Shown piece after piece: positions 21,829-26,745 of a DNA stretch of 64,000 nucleotides. This DNA comes from Erythrobacter mangrovi (GTDB taxonomy: Bacteria > Pseudomonadota > Alphaproteobacteria > Sphingomonadales > Sphingomonadaceae), in NCBI RefSeq assembly GCF_013260645.1, contig NZ_CP053921.1, positions 2,777,289 to 2,841,288 on the forward strand, written 5' to 3'. Numbering within the stretch: the stretch's first letter is position 1; each line of letters begins with the position of its first letter. A program made the position numbers and the translations under genes. The notes beneath the pieces were generated by a model. It saw only the letters and a program-made list of their open reading frames with translations. It did no database searches and was not told the DNA's origin.

Positions 21829-22428
21829 TCAGGCGCGCGGAGCCATCCGGCGGTAGCTGAGCGCTTCCGCCAGATGGATACGCCCGACCTCTTCCACTCC
21901 TGCGAGATCCGCGATCGTTCGTGCCACTCGCAGCATGCGGGTGTAGCCGCGCGCCGACAGGCGCATTGCGGTCGTTGCCTGCATCAGCAGGTGGCGGCCC
22001 TGTTCGTCAGGCGTGGCGAATCGCTCGAGCGCGTCCCCGTCGAGTTCGGCATTGGTGCGTACCCCGGTCTCTCCGGCGCGCGCCGTTTGGCGCTGCCTGG
22101 CGGCGAACACACGCGCAGCAACTTCCGCACTGCCTTCTGACGGTGGCGGCAACGCCAGATCGGCGGCGCTGACGGGGTCGACTTCGACATGCAGGTCGAT
22201 CCGATCGAGCATCGGCCCACTGACCTTGCCCTGGTAATCCGCGGCGCACCGTGGTGCACGACTGCAGGCGAGCGCGGCATCGCCCAGATGTCCGCAACGG
22301 CACGGGTTCATTGCCGCCACCAGTTGGACATTGGCGGGAAAGGTGACATGCGCGTTGGCGCGGGCAACGTCGACCTTGCCTGTTTCGAGCGGCTGGCGCA
22401 GCGAATCGAGCACAGCGCGCTGGAATTC
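21829..22428 (-). pseudogene. comM: comM/yifB 3' fragment (Mg-chelatase-like ATPase), split by transposon
   Basis: Encodes the last ~200 residues of a YifB/ComM protein, beginning PEFQRAVLDSLRQPLETG and including NAHVTFPANVQLVAAMNPCRCGHLGD and the arginine-finger and C-terminal Mg_chelatase_C regions (LSARGYTRMLRVARTIADLAG). The 5' part is at 25657-26586. The two halves join in frame across one copy of TGGAATTC when the element at 22429-25669 is removed. An open frame extends into the transposon to 22512 but has no likely start. ComM is a hexameric helicase that promotes branch migration during natural transformation. Confidence 0.92.
22421..22428. repeat. Target-site duplication, left copy
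   Basis: TGGAATTC, repeated at 25670-25677. One copy restores the comM reading frame (Glu-Phe-Gln at PEFQRAV). An 8-bp duplication is the usual length for IS1595-family insertion. Confidence 0.92.
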
Positions 22429-22454
22429 CGGCATTATGTAGCAAGCGCACCAAA
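22429..22454 (+). repeat. Terminal inverted repeat, left end
   Basis: 26 bp beginning CGGCATTATGTAGC and ending CACCAAA, the exact reverse complement of 25644-25669. The next inner base no longer matches. Confidence 0.95.
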
Positions 22455-22497
22455 TAAGAGGCGGACGCCTACGCCTACGATGTGATACGTATCGAAT

Positions 22498-22935
22498 ATG
22501 GGGACACAGCACGCAATCACTGCCCTACGCGACAAGCGCGGGGAACTCGCCGGGACCATCGACGCCTTGCAGGATCAACTTCGGCAAGCATTCATCGACA
22601 TGGACCACATAGACGCCACGCTGCGCATGTTCGTGCCGGATATCGAACTGGACGAGATAAAGCCCAAGCCGCTCCCACCACGTCACAGGGCCTTCAAGGG
22701 ACAGGTCACGCGCGCAATCCTCGCCATGCTGCGCAAGGAAGGGCCGATGGACGCGAAAGCTATCACGTTGCGCCTCATGGCCGAACGCGAGCTAAACGTG
22801 AACGACAGCGGCCTACAGAAGGCGATGCACAAGCGGATAGGGGCGGCACTACGGAACTTGCGGGAGCGAGTGCTGGTATGTTCGGAGAAAGGAAAAGGCG
22901 GGTTGCTGGTGTGGAGCCTAGCCAAAAACCCATAG
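22498..22935 (+). CDS. Transposon passenger: coiled-coil plus winged-helix-like protein
   Basis: 145 residues. The N-terminal third is a heptad-like helix (ALRDKRGELAGTIDALQDQLRQAFIDM). A linker with PKPLPPRHR leads to a C-terminal domain, VTRAILAMLRKEGPMDAKAITLRLM and AALRNLRERVLVCSEKGKGGLLVWSL, which reads as a winged helix with a wing hairpin. It could be a DNA-binding regulator of the element. A palindrome GATACGTATC sits 5 bp before the ATG and may be its operator. No family name is known to me, and no homologous chromosomal neighbour is present. Confidence 0.75.
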   Translation: MGTQHAITALRDKRGELAGTIDALQDQLRQAFIDMDHIDATLRMFVPDIELDEIKPKPLPPRHRAFKGQVTRAILAMLRKEGPMDAKAITLRLMAERELNVNDSGLQKAMHKRIGAALRNLRERVLVCSEKGKGGLLVWSLAKNP

Positions 22936-22992
22936 GGCAAAGCCAAGCAGTATCAGGCCGAGCAACAAGGCAAATTCTATCCGTTCTTTCAT
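22918..22992 (-). CDS. Possible 24-residue single-helix membrane peptide
   Basis: A very short frame encoding MKERIEFALLLGLILLGFAL plus four residues, almost entirely one hydrophobic helix after a charged start. AGGG lies 6 nt before the ATG. Its end overlaps the 3' end of the passenger gene on the other strand. It could be a small toxin-like or regulatory membrane peptide, or chance; there is no independent support. Confidence 0.3.
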   Translation of the reverse strand: MKERIEFALLLGLILLGFALWVFG

Positions 22993-23001
22993 TTTCGACC
23001 C

Positions 23002-23010
23002 TGTGGATAA
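23002..23010. promoter_or_regulatory. Consensus DnaA box inside the transposon
   Basis: TGTGGATAA, the exact complement of the TTATCCACA DnaA consensus, in the non-coding part before the tRNA. A single box could be chance. Confidence 0.35.
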
Positions 23011-23033
23011 CTTACGGACGCCTGAAAAGGTGA

Positions 23034-23063
23034 TTCGACTCAACACGCTAGGCGAAGTATTAA
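23034..23063 (+). promoter_or_regulatory. Candidate promoter of the transposon tRNA
   Basis: TTCGAC (23034-23039), an 18-bp spacer, and TATTAA (23058-23063) resemble sigma-70 -35 and -10 elements, placing a start site a few bases before the tRNA at 23078. Weak match to consensus. Confidence 0.35.
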
Positions 23064-23077
23064 CCATCCAGACCTTT

Positions 23078-23164
23078 GGCCGCGTGGCGGAATGGTAACG
23101 CACCCCTTTTGCAATGGGGAAGTCCTGTGTAGCGCAGGTGCAGGTTCGAGTCCTGTCGCGGTCT
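23078..23164 (+). tRNA. Class-II (long variable arm) tRNA with UGC anticodon, atypical
   Basis: A full cloverleaf can be drawn. The acceptor is GGCCGCG (23078-23084) with CGCGGTC (23157-23163), including a G2-U71 wobble. The D stem is GCG/CGC around GAATGGTAA. The anticodon stem is CCCC/GGGG (23103-23106, 23116-23119) with a U-U mismatch at 31-39, and the loop gives TGC at 23110-23112. The long variable arm is CCTGTG/CGCAGG (23124-23138 region), and the T arm is GCAGG-TTCGAGT-CCTGT. The body looks like Leu or Ser tRNA, but UGC reads Ala codon GCA. U73 follows and CCA is not encoded. It is passenger DNA of the IS1595 element; amino-acid identity is uncertain. Confidence 0.75.
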
Positions 23165-23181
23165 CGCAAAAAGGTTGGAAC

Positions 23182-23460
23182 GGTGAGCGCGCTACACGCT
23201 CACCAACCCCCTCATAAATCGAGTCAGTGAATCAGTCAGGCTGGATTCATCGACAAAATCCTATAGCAAAATTGTTGGAATTTTTACGCGCTGCGCGTAG
23301 TGCAGCACAGAACGCTCAATTTTCTGCATCGCTACCTGACGTTTGTCAGTGCATTAAATTGGGACGTTCGGCGGGCAGAAATGCCCGTCTCTGGAGAGAG
23401 ACCAGAGTGGAGACCGCTACAGGTCAAAGGTTGAGGGGGTCAGTCGTAAGGCTGGCCCCC
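23182..23460 (+). ncRNA. Hairpin-dense non-coding region downstream of the tRNA
   Basis: No protein frame fits here. Consecutive perfect or near-perfect stems are: GGTGAGCG/CGCTCACC (23182-23204), TGAATC/GATTCA (23228-23249), AAAATT/AATTTT (23268-23284), TACGCGC/GCGCGTA (23285-23299), TGCAG/CTGCA (23301-23328), CTGAC/GTCAG (23336-23349), CGGGCA-GAAA-TGCCCG (23372-23387), CTCTGG/CCAGAG (23389-23407), GACC/GGTC (23412-23425) and GGGGGTCAG/CTGGCCCCC (23435-23460). The GNRA tetraloop and the spacing point to a structured RNA, perhaps cotranscribed with the tRNA. The last stem may end transcription from either side. Strand and function are not established. Confidence 0.5.
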
Positions 23461-23468
23461 AAACTATT

Positions 23469-24422
23469 TTAGCGCTGCCAGTACCCCGCCCACTGGCGGC
23501 TCTGACGCGATGCCATAGCGGCTTCCAACACCATCGCAGCCTGCCCGCCATTCGAGACGCGGCGGTTATCCTCGCGGAACGAAGCCTCATGCGCATAGGC
23601 TTGCAGGTACGGACCTGCGATATGGTGGTGCGTACCAACTTCCATCCGGCGAAGGCGCGAGAAGAAGCTTTCCGCCTGATTGGTGCAAGCAATGCCATCC
23701 GAGTACGCAACCGTGTGGTTGATGCGGTACGTATCGAACTTGGCGTGTAGGTCATCCCAGTGCGAAGCTTCGTCGGCATGGACGGTCGACATGTGGTGGA
23801 TGCTCGCGGAAATCATTTCCCCGCCGCGCGCTTCGCTCTTGGCGACGATGGCAAGCGACTGACCACCGCGTTCGCGGCCCACGACCACCACCTGGCGCTT
23901 GCCAGTCTGATTGATTGCAAGGCGACGGTCACGGCGATTGTCCTTGCGATTTGCGGGGCGGACGTGACCGCCAAAATAGGCACCGTCCAATTCGACTTCG
24001 CCGGAAAGGGTGCGGCCAATATCTTCGCGCGCCATCGCTTCGCGCAGTTTGTGCGAGAGGACGAAGGCAGTCTTGTATTGCACGTCCAGATCACGGCTCA
24101 TTTGCAGGGCGCTGATACCCTTTGCGCCATTCACGAAGATGACAATCGCAGCGAGCAGGTCGGTGTACGACAGCTTGCGCGAGGCAAAGATCGTACCGCT
24201 GGTGACGCTGTACTGGTGGTAGCAGGCAACGCACTTGAACTTGCGGCGGGTCGAGATGTGATAGGCGTCCGTGCAGCCGCACTTGGGGCACACAGGCTCA
24301 CCGTCCGTGTCCGGCCAACGCAGGTCACAGAATACACCGTAAGCGGCATCCTCGCCCATGCGAAATACCTTCGCCAGCGAGAGAGTGCGGGCCTTTGCGG
24401 AGAGAAGAAAGTGTTGTGCCAT
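23469..24422 (-). CDS. IS1595-family (ISXO2-like) transposase
   Basis: 317 residues. An N-terminal zinc ribbon (CPKCGCTDAYHI ... FKCVACYHQYS, about residues 45-73) is followed by a DDE-type core: Asp in SGEVELDGAYFGG, Asp in STVHADEASHWDDL and the late NQAESFFSRLRRMEVGTHHH segment with the third acidic residue. This is the domain order of IS1595 transposases, which cut at the 26-bp ends and leave 8-bp duplications. The gene looks intact and lies in the middle of the element, reading towards the left end. It is divergent from the DUF6471 gene over an AT-rich promoter region. Confidence 0.95.
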   Translation of the reverse strand: MAQHFLLSAKARTLSLAKVFRMGEDAAYGVFCDLRWPDTDGEPVCPKCGCTDAYHISTRRKFKCVACYHQYSVTSGTIFASRKLSYTDLLAAIVIFVNGAKGISALQMSRDLDVQYKTAFVLSHKLREAMAREDIGRTLSGEVELDGAYFGGHVRPANRKDNRRDRRLAINQTGKRQVVVVGRERGGQSLAIVAKSEARGGEMISASIHHMSTVHADEASHWDDLHAKFDTYRINHTVAYSDGIACTNQAESFFSRLRRMEVGTHHHIAGPYLQAYAHEASFREDNRRVSNGGQAAMVLEAAMASRQSRQWAGYWQR

Positions 24423-24526
24423 GTCATCGTTTCCAGTGCTTATGCACTCTTTATGATGACATCATGTACTCTTGTCAATGGCAAATGCATCGCGTATAGT
24501 GATATTTAGCATCACAGGAGCGGCAT

Positions 24527-24751
24527 ATGCCCGTCAAGGAAAAGGAATGGGAGGACCGCGTTAAGGGCCTCCTGAAAGCCGAGTTAAAGCGAAAGAACGT
24601 GACCTATGCCGAGCTGGTCGGGAGACTGGCGGACATTGGGGTTCACGATACCGAGCCGAACATTCGCAACAAGATCAGTCGCGGTAAGTTTACTTCGGTG
24701 TTTCTTGTTCAATGTCTGACGGCAATCGGGGTGACTGAGTTGCGCCTATGA
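24527..24751 (+). CDS. DUF6471 domain-containing protein
   Basis: 74 residues, helical: KGLLKAELKRKNVTYAELVGRLADIGVHDTEPNIRNKISRGKFTSVFLVQCLTAIGV. The pattern is that of small lambda-Cro-like helix-turn-helix proteins annotated DUF6471, common in alphaproteobacterial mobile DNA. It probably binds DNA and could set transposase or cargo expression from the shared divergent region (24423-24526), where GTGATATTTAGCATCAC (24499-24515) forms a partial palindrome. AGGAG is 8 nt upstream of the ATG. Its stop overlaps the end of the opposing membrane-protein gene by 6 bp. Confidence 0.8.
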   Translation: MPVKEKEWEDRVKGLLKAELKRKNVTYAELVGRLADIGVHDTEPNIRNKISRGKFTSVFLVQCLTAIGVTELRL

Positions 24752-25552
24752 CTGATTGTCCTTCAATTTTCGGCGGAGGTCATCGCGCACTTCGCGATTA
24801 TAATATTCCCCGCCCAACTCTCGTATCTGCTCCTTGAGTTCGGCCAAAACGCCCTTCGACGCGAAATTGCATTCCCCATCTTCGTCCTCAATGACGATTG
24901 CCAACTCTACCAATGTGAGGTCGTCATTCACATGATCTTCCTTGTGCAGAAGCTTGAACACCAGCTTTCGGCGCTCCCACAAGGTATCGCGCCCATCCCT
25001 TTCCCCTGAGATCAGGTCGATGCAATAGTCTCTGAAATGCAGTGCGGCCACTCTCACCCGGTAGTCATAAGAGAGTTGATTGATGAGGGTGTCGATCTCA
25101 ACAACAAGCTTATTGATCTGATCGGCGCTATAACCAGCCTGCAACATCGGCTCTGTTTTGAGGTTGGCGATGGCTGACAGCTTCGCCAGCGCCACGCTCA
25201 GCGCCTTGCGGTTATCTAGGCTAAATTGGCGCAGGTCGGCCCTGAGAAGCCGCTCGGGCCTTTCGATCTCCCCGACCAGCGCCTCTTTTTCGTCCTGGTC
25301 CTCTTTCCAGACGAAATAAGAAGCCGCGACCAAGCGCAGGACAACCACAGCGAGGACTGTCATTGCAACGCCTAGGAAAAGGGTCTCTTGGACTGAGTCT
25401 GTCATCTCAGCACCCGCCATCCAAAGCGCGAGCGTGGCAAATGGCACAATTAATATTGTCAGCCTGTCGGTCAGAAGAACCGACTTCTGGGCGGCCCGAT
25501 TGAACAGCAAGCCAAGATACTTGAGAAAGTTCATAGTAGAGTCTTGCTCCAT
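24746..25552 (-). CDS. Transposon passenger: two-TM protein with helical cytosolic domain
   Basis: 268 residues. Two membrane segments (about 29-45 and 54-78: LTILIVPFATLALWMAG, LFLGVAMTVLAVVVLRLVAASYFVW) are followed by about 185 mainly helical, highly charged residues (EDQDEKEALVGEIERPERLLRADLRQF and a tail REVRDDLRRKLKDNQS). No enzymatic motif is visible. The layout resembles membrane effectors or sensors in small defence systems, but this is only an analogy. A second in-frame ATG at 25534 is possible. It is the cargo gene nearest the right end. Confidence 0.7.
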   Translation of the reverse strand: MEQDSTMNFLKYLGLLFNRAAQKSVLLTDRLTILIVPFATLALWMAGAEMTDSVQETLFLGVAMTVLAVVVLRLVAASYFVWKEDQDEKEALVGEIERPERLLRADLRQFSLDNRKALSVALAKLSAIANLKTEPMLQAGYSADQINKLVVEIDTLINQLSYDYRVRVAALHFRDYCIDLISGERDGRDTLWERRKLVFKLLHKEDHVNDDLTLVELAIVIEDEDGECNFASKGVLAELKEQIRELGGEYYNREVRDDLRRKLKDNQS

Positions 25553-25643
25553 TTCGCCGCCAAAATGGATTCGGTTCTAGGCGAGGGTCAATCGCATCGC
25601 CAGTGATTACAGCCGCCCTCATGCGCAGGGCTTCCGTAATCGG

Positions 25644-25669
25644 TTTGGTGCGCTTGCTACATAATGCCG
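25644..25669 (-). repeat. Terminal inverted repeat, right end
   Basis: 26 bp, exact reverse complement of 22429-22454, abutting the second TGGAATTC copy. Confidence 0.95.
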
Positions 25670-26586
25670 TGGAATTCGGGCAATTCGTCGAGGAACAGCA
25701 CGCCGAGATGGGCAAGGCTCACCTCTCCCGGCTTGACCTTGAGGCCGCCGCCGGTGAGCGCAGCCATGCTCGCCGAATGATGCGGCGCGCGGAACGGCCG
25801 GGCGCGGCTGATACGCCCATCCTCCAGCGTGCCCGCGACCGATTGGACCATGCTGACCTCCAGCGCCTCGGCTGGGGTCAGGGGGGGCAGGATCCCCGGA
25901 AGGCAGCTCGCCATCAGCGACTTGCCTGCGCCCGGCGGTCCAACCATCAACAGGTTGTGCCCACCTGCGGCAGCGATCTCCAGCGCTCGCTTGGCACCTT
26001 CCTGCCCTTTTACCTGCTTGAGATCCGGCCCGGCTCCCGGTTCTTCCACTTCCCCTGGCACGGGTTCGGGCAGGCGTTGCGTGCCCTTGAGGTGGTTGAG
26101 TAGGCTCGCCAGGTCGGGAGCAGCGCAGACCGGCACCTCGCTCGCCCAGCGTGCTTCGGAACCCTGCGCATACGGGCAGATCAGGCCCAGCTCCTGCTCG
26201 CTGGCATGCAGCGCGGCGAGCAGGACGCCGGGCGAGGGCACTACTCGCGCGTCGAGCGCCAGCTCGCCCACCGCAATCCAGTCGGTCAGCTGCTCGGCAT
26301 CGGTAACGCCCATCGCCGCGAGCAGCGCGAGCGCGATCGGCAGGTCGTAGTGGCTGCCTTCCTTGGGTAGGTCGGCTGGCGAGAGATTGATGGTGATGCG
26401 CTTGGGCGGCAGGGCCAGCCCCATGCTAGCGAGTGCGGCACGCACCCGCTCTTTGCTTTCGCCCACGGCCTTGTCGGCCAGTCCGACGATGTTGAACTTC
26501 GGCAAGCCCGGGGCGACCGAGCATTGCACCTCTACGCCGCGAGCCTCGAGCCCGAGATAGGCGACCGTTTTGACCAGCGCGACCAG
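25657..26586 (-). pseudogene. comM: comM/yifB 5' fragment, truncated by transposon
   Basis: About 305 residues of a YifB/ComM protein: the N-terminal ChlI-like domain (CSVAPGLPKFNIVGLADKAV, SPADLPKEGSHYDLPIALALL), then the AAA+ module with Walker A GPPGAGKS and Walker B VLFLDELPEF. Reading then enters the inverted repeat and stops at 25657. Homology to VALVKTVAYLGLEARG-type starts indicates initiation at a CTG codon (26584-26586) with AGGAG 6 nt upstream; the nearest in-frame GTG (26529) would lose 19 conserved residues. The sensor and C-terminal parts are at 21829-22428, so ComM function is expected to be lost. Confidence 0.9.
25670..25677. repeat. Target-site duplication, right copy
   Basis: TGGAATTC, matching 22421-22428. 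Confidence 0.92.
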
Positions 26587-26745
26587 CGTTAACTCCTACC
26601 TCGTGGCAGTCCCCAGTGGATGCGCGCAAGAAATTGATTTGTCGAGAGGAAACCGGACCGTTTCGGTAGTCAAGCGATGCCCTTGCCGGGGTGTTAAGCA
26701 TGAGCCTTGGGGAGCTGGCAAGCAGCCTGGCTGCATCGGTTCGGC

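What the first reader, a model, noticed from the sequence alone, without database searches (positions are those of the whole stretch)
22429..25669. Passenger-carrying IS1595-family transposon splitting comM
Seen directly: perfect 26-bp inverted ends, an 8-bp TGGAATTC duplication, an intact zinc-ribbon DDE transposase, and comM halves that rejoin in frame when the element is removed. The cargo (tRNA, structured non-coding block, three or four small genes) is not what IS1595 elements usually carry. The perfect ends and intact transposase suggest a recent, possibly active insertion. This is the best candidate in the window for an undescribed system.
Basis: partly seen in the sequence, partly recalled or inferred. 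Interest (0 to 1): 0.87.

Follow-up and report, generated by a model that had tools for sequence, protein, structure and literature searches.

The report
Transposon with a swappable targeting protein
A small bacterial jumping gene that cuts the DNA-uptake gene comM in two belongs to a widespread family whose members carry an exchangeable DNA-binding protein that appears to choose the exact insertion site, much as Tn7's targeting proteins do, but built from unrelated parts.

Summary
In detail: a 3,241-bp IS1595-family element (22429-25669) with perfect 26-bp ends and an 8-bp TGGAATTC duplication splits comM. The tRNA and RNA block are not the defining cargo; they vary between relatives.

The relatives reveal a targeted transposon. 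Of 87 distinct elements with ends and target duplication, 29 lie in comM, at only two positions, in both orientations. One position, in the Walker-B segment, is also a target of Tn6022 and Tsy (PMC10293859).

All 87 have a small gene near one end (orfA, here 22498-22935) encoding a coiled coil plus winged helix. Among 52 elements whose target is used at least twice, the nearest OrfA relative shares the target in 52, the nearest transposase in 28, the nearest DUF6471 in 20. The OrfA tree needs the minimum of 9 target changes, the transposase tree 23. Two larger comM insertions with 44-45% identical transposases keep this OrfA type and carry defence genes.

OrfA is most likely an exchangeable target selector. 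Binding and transposition are untested, and several comM-type OrfA elements sit elsewhere although comM is intact.

The parts
22429..25669 (.). whole IS1595-family element
22429..22454 (+). left terminal inverted repeat, 26 bp
25644..25669 (-). right terminal inverted repeat, 26 bp
22421..22428 (.). target duplication TGGAATTC, left copy
25670..25677 (.). target duplication TGGAATTC, right copy
22498..22935 (+). orfA, 145 aa, coiled coil plus winged helix; proposed target selector
   Evidence: found by HMM in 87 of 87 elements; target tracks it; model mean pLDDT 86.6; Foldseek's best matches are winged-helix domains, none at E 0.001 or better
23078..23165 (+). class II tRNA, anticodon UGC by ARAGORN, no encoded CCA; U at the discriminator position by my reading
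23166..23468 (+). structured non-coding stretch downstream of the tRNA
   Evidence: fold z = -6.59 for 23075-23475
23408..23423 (+). stretch complementary at 15 of 16 positions to the 3' end of the tRNA with CCA added
   Evidence: 0 of 3000 shuffles; coordinates; 10 of its 16 bases pair with 23158-23168 in the predicted fold
23435..23460 (+). terminator-like G+C hairpin between the tRNA unit and the transposase 3' end
   Evidence: sequence; coordinates
23469..24422 (-). IS1595-family DDE transposase with zinc ribbon, 317 aa
24527..24751 (+). DUF6471 protein, 74 aa, divergent from the transposase; core gene
   Evidence: PF20075 6.3e-31; found in 83 of 87 elements; upstream and divergent in 78 of 83
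24746..25552 (-). variable cargo gene, 268 aa; membrane segments near the N-terminus by my reading
   Evidence: no Pfam or NCBIfam family over its cut-off, no PADLOC hit at 1e-5; no relative among cargo ORFs
21829..22428 (-). comM 3' part (codons from about 305 to 505)
25670..26595 (-). comM 5' part (codons 1 to about 309 of the open frame)

Best explanation
The element is a target-specific transposon of the IS1595 family. The zinc-ribbon DDE transposase cuts and joins the 26-bp ends and leaves 8-bp duplications. OrfA, a 145-aa coiled-coil winged-helix protein encoded just inside one end, most likely binds a conserved sequence of one chosen gene (here the comM segment encoding the Walker-B motif LDELPEF) and brings the transposase there. 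This fixes the insertion position but not its orientation. DUF6471, divergent from the transposase, is probably its regulator (inference). OrfA is exchanged between elements by recombination (inferred from discordant trees), so the target changes with OrfA and not with the transposase. Landing in comM would weaken recombination of heterologous DNA taken up by transformation and so protect the element from removal (inference from published work on ComM: PMC11472951, PMC4774983, passages). Cargo between the core genes is free to vary: here a tRNA, a structured RNA and a 268-aa protein; in two larger comM insertions, anti-phage systems. Shown here: fixed sites, both orientations, association with OrfA, predicted fold. 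Inferred: DNA binding, recruitment, regulation, effect on transformation.
For: 29 of 87 distinct elements lie in comM: 17 at codon 307/308, 12 at codon 243/244, orientations 9/8 and 7/5. Among 52 elements with all three genes and a target used at least twice, the nearest neighbour shares the target for OrfA 52/52, transposase 28/52, DUF6471 20/52. With neighbours only from another labelled family: 50/50, 15/50, 11/50. The OrfA tree needs 9 label changes (the minimum), transposase 23, DUF6471 24, shuffled about 32. Among the 29 comM elements OrfA separates site 1 from site 2 in 29/29, transposase in 21/29. Natural swaps: L045 (comM) and L046 (repeat-type site) have transposases 92% identical and OrfA 25%; the window's OrfA is 92-94% identical to L050/L042 (same comM site, opposite orientation) with transposases 68-73%. 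L164 has other ends, a 44% transposase and a 65% OrfA, and sits at the same GAATTC; L242 has a 45% transposase, a 61% OrfA and the same comM break. DNA beside the ends tracks the target poorly: distal 300 bp 15/52, OrfA-side subterminal 19/52, each TIR 19/52 (shuffle maxima 18-21). No guide-like excess of matches between element and target. Predicted fold: coiled coil plus winged helix.
Against: No binding or transposition experiment. Over all 87 elements, 6 with a comM-inserted nearest OrfA relative are elsewhere, and 5 comM elements have a nearest OrfA relative that is elsewhere. L047's OrfA is 97% identical to that of L021 (comM), yet L047 lies in another gene; comM is uninterrupted in the genomes of L014, L025, L047 and L120. 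In an OrfA search, 9 hits besides the window itself had at least 61% identity to its OrfA; 6 have comM in the flank, 3 do not. Target groups were defined from the same loci, and the 52-element test leaves out 33 elements with a once-seen target and 2 without DUF6471. Transposase and, barely, DUF6471 also beat the label shuffles.
Confidence: 0.85

Rival explanations
1. Target specificity lies in the transposase; OrfA only helps or regulates, and its association with the site is an accident of descent.
For: Transposase neighbours share the target more often than label shuffles (28/52 against a mean of 8.8, maximum 21), and one transposase clade of 6 rows is all comM site 1.
Against: 24 of 52 elements are placed correctly by OrfA and wrongly by the transposase, none the other way round. 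Transposases 92% identical go to different sites (L045/L046). Two elements with transposases only 44-45% identical to the window's go to the same site.
Confidence: 0.06
2. The comM elements descend from a few old insertions; internal genes were replaced by homologous recombination, and orfA stays with the site because it lies close to the flank.
For: orfA lies a median 68 bp from the end. Subterminal DNA and TIRs reach the upper edge of the shuffles (19/52).
Against: Seven pairs with 85-94% OrfA identity sit in opposite orientation at the same comM site, so orfA faces different comM halves. The DNA between the end and orfA tracks the site far less than OrfA (19/52); that stretch is short, so this is weaker evidence. 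OrfA neighbours from other labelled families still share the target (50/50).
Confidence: 0.05
3. No targeting: the element has a loose local preference, and selection for comM loss enriches comM insertions.
For: A weak palindromic preference exists in the duplication; a matrix from 40 non-comM sites puts some site-1 junctions at rank 1-5 of their comM region (L151, L076, L105, L057). Loss of comM is thought to favour mobile elements (PMC4774983, PMC11472951, passages).
Against: Only two positions in comM are used, split by OrfA type 29/29. The same matrix ranks site 1 at a median fraction of 0.041 and site 2 at 0.168 of positions. Other OrfA types hit other genes or repeats at recurrent positions.
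Confidence: 0.03
4. The tRNA and RNA block are the point of the element: a translation-altering tRNA (missense here, ochre suppressor in relatives) with an RNA that folds back on its 3' end.
For: The window tRNA has an Ala anticodon on a class II body and no encoded CCA, while all 47 other tRNA sequences taken from the genome encode CCA. L054 and L068 carry UUA-anticodon tRNAs in the same slot. A complement of the CCA-ended tRNA 3' end lies downstream at 15 of 16 positions in the window and in L054.
Against: 6 of 87 elements have a tRNA in the slot. The complement is absent in 6 other tRNA-bearing elements tested. Nothing ties the tRNA to transposition or target.
Confidence: 0.1

Closest known systems
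IS1595-family insertion sequences with passenger genes
   Same: Zinc-ribbon plus DDE transposase domains, terminal inverted repeats, 8-bp duplication, passenger genes (passengers recalled from general knowledge)
   Different: Position-exact targeting that follows an exchangeable accessory protein; not seen in the paper listings
Tn7-like transposons with dedicated selectors, notably Tn6022 with TnsF in comM (PMC10293859, passages)
   Same: A dedicated protein chooses a conserved gene site; selectors are modular; the comM Walker-B segment is a target
   Different: An IS1595 transposase and no Tns/Tni protein in the element; the proposed selector is a small coiled-coil winged-helix protein; 8-bp duplication; either orientation; median element length 3.5 kb
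Tsy (tyrosine-recombinase element in comM; PMC10293859, passages)
   Same: Hits the same conserved comM segment
   Different: Tsy uses tyrosine recombinases and TnsF; none are encoded in this element
Mobile elements that inactivate comM in Acinetobacter and others (PMC4774983, PMC11472951, passages)
   Same: Mobile DNA, in part with defence systems, interrupts comM
   Different: Different hosts and a different transposition machine

Membership tests
IS1595 family | DDE_Tnp_IS1595 domain with N-terminal zinc ribbon | tested here: met
   PF12762 2e-36 and PF12760 2.4e-13; NF033547 148.7 bits, cut-off 75
IS1595 family | Terminal inverted repeats and 8-bp target duplication (duplication length recalled) | tested here: met
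   26-bp perfect ends, 8-bp duplication; 87 distinct relatives were selected for having both
IS1595 family | Assignment to a named ISfinder subgroup | not testable with these tools
   ISfinder not held
Tn7-like transposons | TnsB/TniA-type transposase with TnsC AAA+ regulator and TnsD/TniQ or TnsF selector | tested here: not met
   The four element proteins give no Tns/Tni family in Pfam or NCBIfam; the transposase is IS1595
Tn7-like transposons | Dedicated selector protein determines a conserved insertion site | tested here: inconclusive
   Strong comparative support for OrfA; no functional test
Tsy elements | Tyrosine recombinase and TnsF-like protein | tested here: not met
   No such domain among the four element proteins
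IS110-type RNA-guided elements (bridge RNA; recalled) | Element RNA with a segment matching the target | tested here: not met
   Longest exact match between own target and element interior is no longer than with other elements' targets: 9.18 against 9.27 for site 1, 9.08 against 9.36 for site 2; exact matches only

The most novel reading that the evidence does not exclude
A new class of protein-programmed transposon: one DDE transposase plus one exchangeable selector of about 145 residues, with no AAA+ regulator in the element, whose OrfA types direct insertion to at least ten different recurrent sites (two in comM, three site groups in glycosyltransferase genes, repeats and others), and which at least two different end types and diverged IS1595 transposase lineages share.
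Probability: 0.75. Interest if true: 0.92.

Novelty: new variant of a known kind. Interest (0 to 1): 0.85.

Why it matters
Insertion sequences are usually thought of as loosely targeted. Here an element of about 3 kb appears to be steered by a small swappable DNA-binding protein, so the protein-DNA code of target choice can be read from natural swaps and tested directly. It would also be a further independent machine, besides Tn6022 and Tsy, converging on the same comM segment, which bears on why mobile DNA so often disables natural transformation. A small selector with natural variants for about ten sites may also be useful for site-directed insertion.

Tried and rejected
Guide RNA: no excess of exact matches between target and element. 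Local sequence preference as the whole cause: too weak. Transposase, DUF6471, TIRs or subterminal DNA as the part that tracks the target: much poorer than OrfA. Occupied comM as the reason for four exceptions: rejected, comM is uninterrupted in those genomes. Rfam: BjrC68 (24.7 bits, gathering 39) and YrlA (19.9, gathering 69) are below threshold. A profile search of OrfA in the PDB gave weak matches, best E 0.0033 to a PI3-kinase regulatory chain, read as coiled-coil likeness. The first OrfA tree used gene calls; one search replaced four of these by HMM (L001, L047, L087, L088) and added five missing ones; the corrected tree is. A relaxed ARAGORN scan gave noise and was not used. Paper searches on this targeting: searches list no paper that I recognise as describing it (listings only); one search matched every word that starts with 'comm' and says nothing; others (allo-tRNA with transposase; DUF6471) found no paper.
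Full report
OBSERVATION. Its ends are perfect 26-bp inverted repeats flanked by TGGAATTC twice. The transposase is one open frame with both IS1595 Pfam domains. Taking the element and one duplication copy out gives one comM frame of 505 codons, named Mg_chelatase/ChlI by Pfam. There is one full copy in its genome. Of 31 same-genus genomes (own included) searched with comM, 16 have an uninterrupted match from codon 2-4 to 505; besides the own genome, G1241, G437, G384 and G1243 are split around codons 304-312, several others around codons 207-231, and one genome has no match.

RELATIVES. A DNA search hit 39 of 298 genomes of the family, own included, some by short matches; the longer matches cover the ends, orfA, transposase and DUF6471, not the middle. 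A transposase-profile scan of named genomes confirmed 390 relatives and kept the best 80. With loci from other searches I had 143 loci with a transposase, 125 distinct transposases, and 101 loci with matching ends and an exact 8-bp duplication. These are 87 distinct elements; loci without a detected duplication were dropped from the counts that follow. OrfA is found in 87 of 87 and DUF6471 in 83. In 84 of 87 orfA is convergent with and downstream of the transposase; DUF6471 is divergent upstream in 78 of 83. Element length is 2,341 to 6,623 bp, median 3,513.

FIXED SITES. Of the 87, 29 have comM at the junction: 17 at codon 307/308 (the LDELPEF segment, Walker B) and 12 at codon 243/244, in both orientations relative to comM (9/8 and 7/5). 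The junction sequences line up base for base. In a few of the 29, comM sequence was found on one side only. Other junctions cluster too: 174 pairs of 48-bp junctions match at 30 or more positions, against 67 pairs for sequence 100 bp away in the left flank; the control also holds comM sequence. The ten groups include glycosyltransferase family 2 genes, an HNH-like gene (my reading; no Pfam hit), an extragenic-repeat-like sequence and a Rhodobacterales intergenic motif (the last two named by me).

WHAT TRACKS THE TARGET. I tested which gene predicts the target. Of the 83 elements with all three genes, 52 have a target used at least twice; the other 31 cannot match and were left out (in all, 33 elements with once-seen targets and 2 grouped elements without DUF6471 are outside the test). 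The nearest neighbour shares the target in 52 of 52 by OrfA, 28 by transposase, 20 by DUF6471; label shuffles average about 8.8 to 8.9 with maxima of 19, 21 and 19, so the transposase and, barely, DUF6471 carry some signal too. Pair identity separates same-target from different-target pairs with AUC 0.92, 0.61 and 0.51. On trees of the same 52, OrfA needs 9 target changes, the minimum for 10 groups; the transposase needs 23 and DUF6471 24; shuffles need about 32. The OrfA groups comM site 1, c3 and c8 are not each a single clade there (2 changes each). Over all 87 elements, a comM-inserted nearest OrfA goes with comM in 24 and elsewhere in 6; a non-comM nearest OrfA goes with comM in 5 and elsewhere in 52.

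NATURAL SWAPS. L045 (comM) and L046 (repeat-type site) have 92% identical transposases and 25% identical OrfAs. The window's own OrfA is 94% and 92% identical to those of L042 and L050, inserted at the same position in the other orientation, while its transposase is 73% and 68% identical to theirs and closest to L036 (comM site 2) and L038 (repeat-type site), both 82%. L164, from the same genus, is a 17.8-kb element with other ends (CAGCATTTTAGCGCAGAGGGGACCAA, 26 of 26), a 44% transposase and a 65% OrfA, at the same GAATTC, with 7 of 8 duplication bases matching. L242 has a 45% transposase and a 61% OrfA between the same comM codons (309/305), about 13 kb apart; its ends were not resolved. This argues against targeting by the transposase. 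Opposite orientations and the poor tracking by end sequences (15-19 of 52, near the upper edge of the shuffles) argue against orfA merely hitch-hiking with the flank.

OrfA. The window's OrfA has no match over cut-off in Pfam or NCBIfam, none in PHROGs at E 1 and none in PADLOC at 1e-5. The model (32 sequences, mean pLDDT 86.6, pTM 0.53) has a helix at 2-45, then three helices and two strands at 69-141, a winged helix. Foldseek's best hits are winged-helix domains (Z-alpha, the MarR-type ZitR, Fur), none at E 0.001 or better, so the fold class is supported and no specific kinship is.

EXCEPTIONS. L014 (in a TrwC-relaxase gene), L025, L047 and L120 have comM-type OrfAs but lie elsewhere; comM is uninterrupted in their genomes. 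Two more, L073 and L106, have a comM-inserted nearest OrfA at only 41% and 38% identity. An OrfA search hit 28 of 397 family genomes, own included; besides the window itself 9 hits had at least 61% identity to its OrfA, of which 6 have comM in the flank and 3 (G258, G210, G039) do not. Most of these genomes had been met before, so this is only partly independent. Targeting is therefore strong but not absolute.

CARGO. Two larger comM insertions with the same OrfA type carry defence genes: type I restriction-modification genes in L242, the methylase matching in two separate pieces, and HmaB/HmaC/DUF499/DUF1156/PLD-helicase-like genes in L164. L243, with a 65% OrfA but no comM match in its 13.5 kb, has BrxC and PglX nearby; its boundaries were not found. 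In the compact elements 188 cargo ORFs of 90 aa or more were called mechanically: 117 are singletons, the two largest clusters have 26 and 10 members. The window's 268-aa protein is a singleton.

tRNA AND RNA BLOCK. The tRNA is a class II molecule with an Ala anticodon. The genome has 48 tRNA matches. The 47 other tRNA sequences, which I took out, all encode CCA and include three Ala tRNAs; those most like the element's tRNA are Leu and Cys tRNAs, at low scores. By my reading the element tRNA has U73 and no G3-U70 pair, so it should not be a normal Ala tRNA. Six of 87 elements have a tRNA in this slot: window UGC, L054 UUA, L079 CGC, L126 CGC, L075 GUC, L120 UGU; L068 (UUA) and L090 (UGC) lack a resolved duplication. 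Downstream of the tRNA in the window and in L054 lies a complement of the CCA-ended tRNA at 15 of 16 positions (0 of 3000 mononucleotide shuffles each), absent in 6 other tRNA-bearing elements. In predicted folds 10 of the 16 bases in the window, and all 15 bases looked at in L007 (the same element as L054), pair with the 3' end of the tRNA gene and the bases just after it; part of this pairing does not need the CCA. I do not know its function.

WHAT IS KNOWN. [quoted passage not shown] comM inactivation by mobile DNA is discussed as a way to limit transformation or removal (PMC4774983, PMC11472951, passages). The listings show no report of IS1595 targeting; one search was uninformative, and subscription papers are largely not held. 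PMC7609411 (passages) mentions one allo-tRNA pseudogene overlapping a transposon-related frame.

VERDICT. A new variant of a known kind: it works like a selector-guided transposon but is not a Tn7-like element.

Noticed in passing
window 23078-23165 and 23408-23423; L054 6129-6219: Odd tRNAs in transposons: Ala anticodon on a class II body here, UUA (ochre) anticodon in L054; both followed by a complement of the CCA-ended tRNA 3' end at 15 of 16 positions.
   Followed up: partly
L068 6082-6168; L034 1497-1582: Two further UUA-anticodon tRNAs, Leu-like by my reading, next to IS1595-type transposases.
   Followed up: partly
L079 6062-6135, L090 1909-1982, L126 2567-2639: Short tRNAs with Ala anticodons (CGC, UGC, CGC) 108-113 bp downstream of the transposase on the same strand; their likeness to Cys tRNAs is my reading.
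   Followed up: partly
same-genus genomes (L165, L166 among them): comM is also split around codons 207-231 in several same-genus genomes by other insertions; comM looks like a hotspot for more than one kind of element.
   Followed up: no
L164 1022-18863; L242 2166-15365: Large comM insertions with OrfA of the window's type carry Hma/DUF499/DUF1156-like or type I restriction-modification genes.
   Followed up: partly
L134 (own genome, outside the window): A second IS1595-type transposase in the same genome has an OrfA relative next to it (hmmsearch 2.2e-14).
   Followed up: no
elements of target groups c3, c5, c6 (L037, L081, L062): Other OrfA types hit glycosyltransferase family 2 genes at recurrent positions.
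   Followed up: partly
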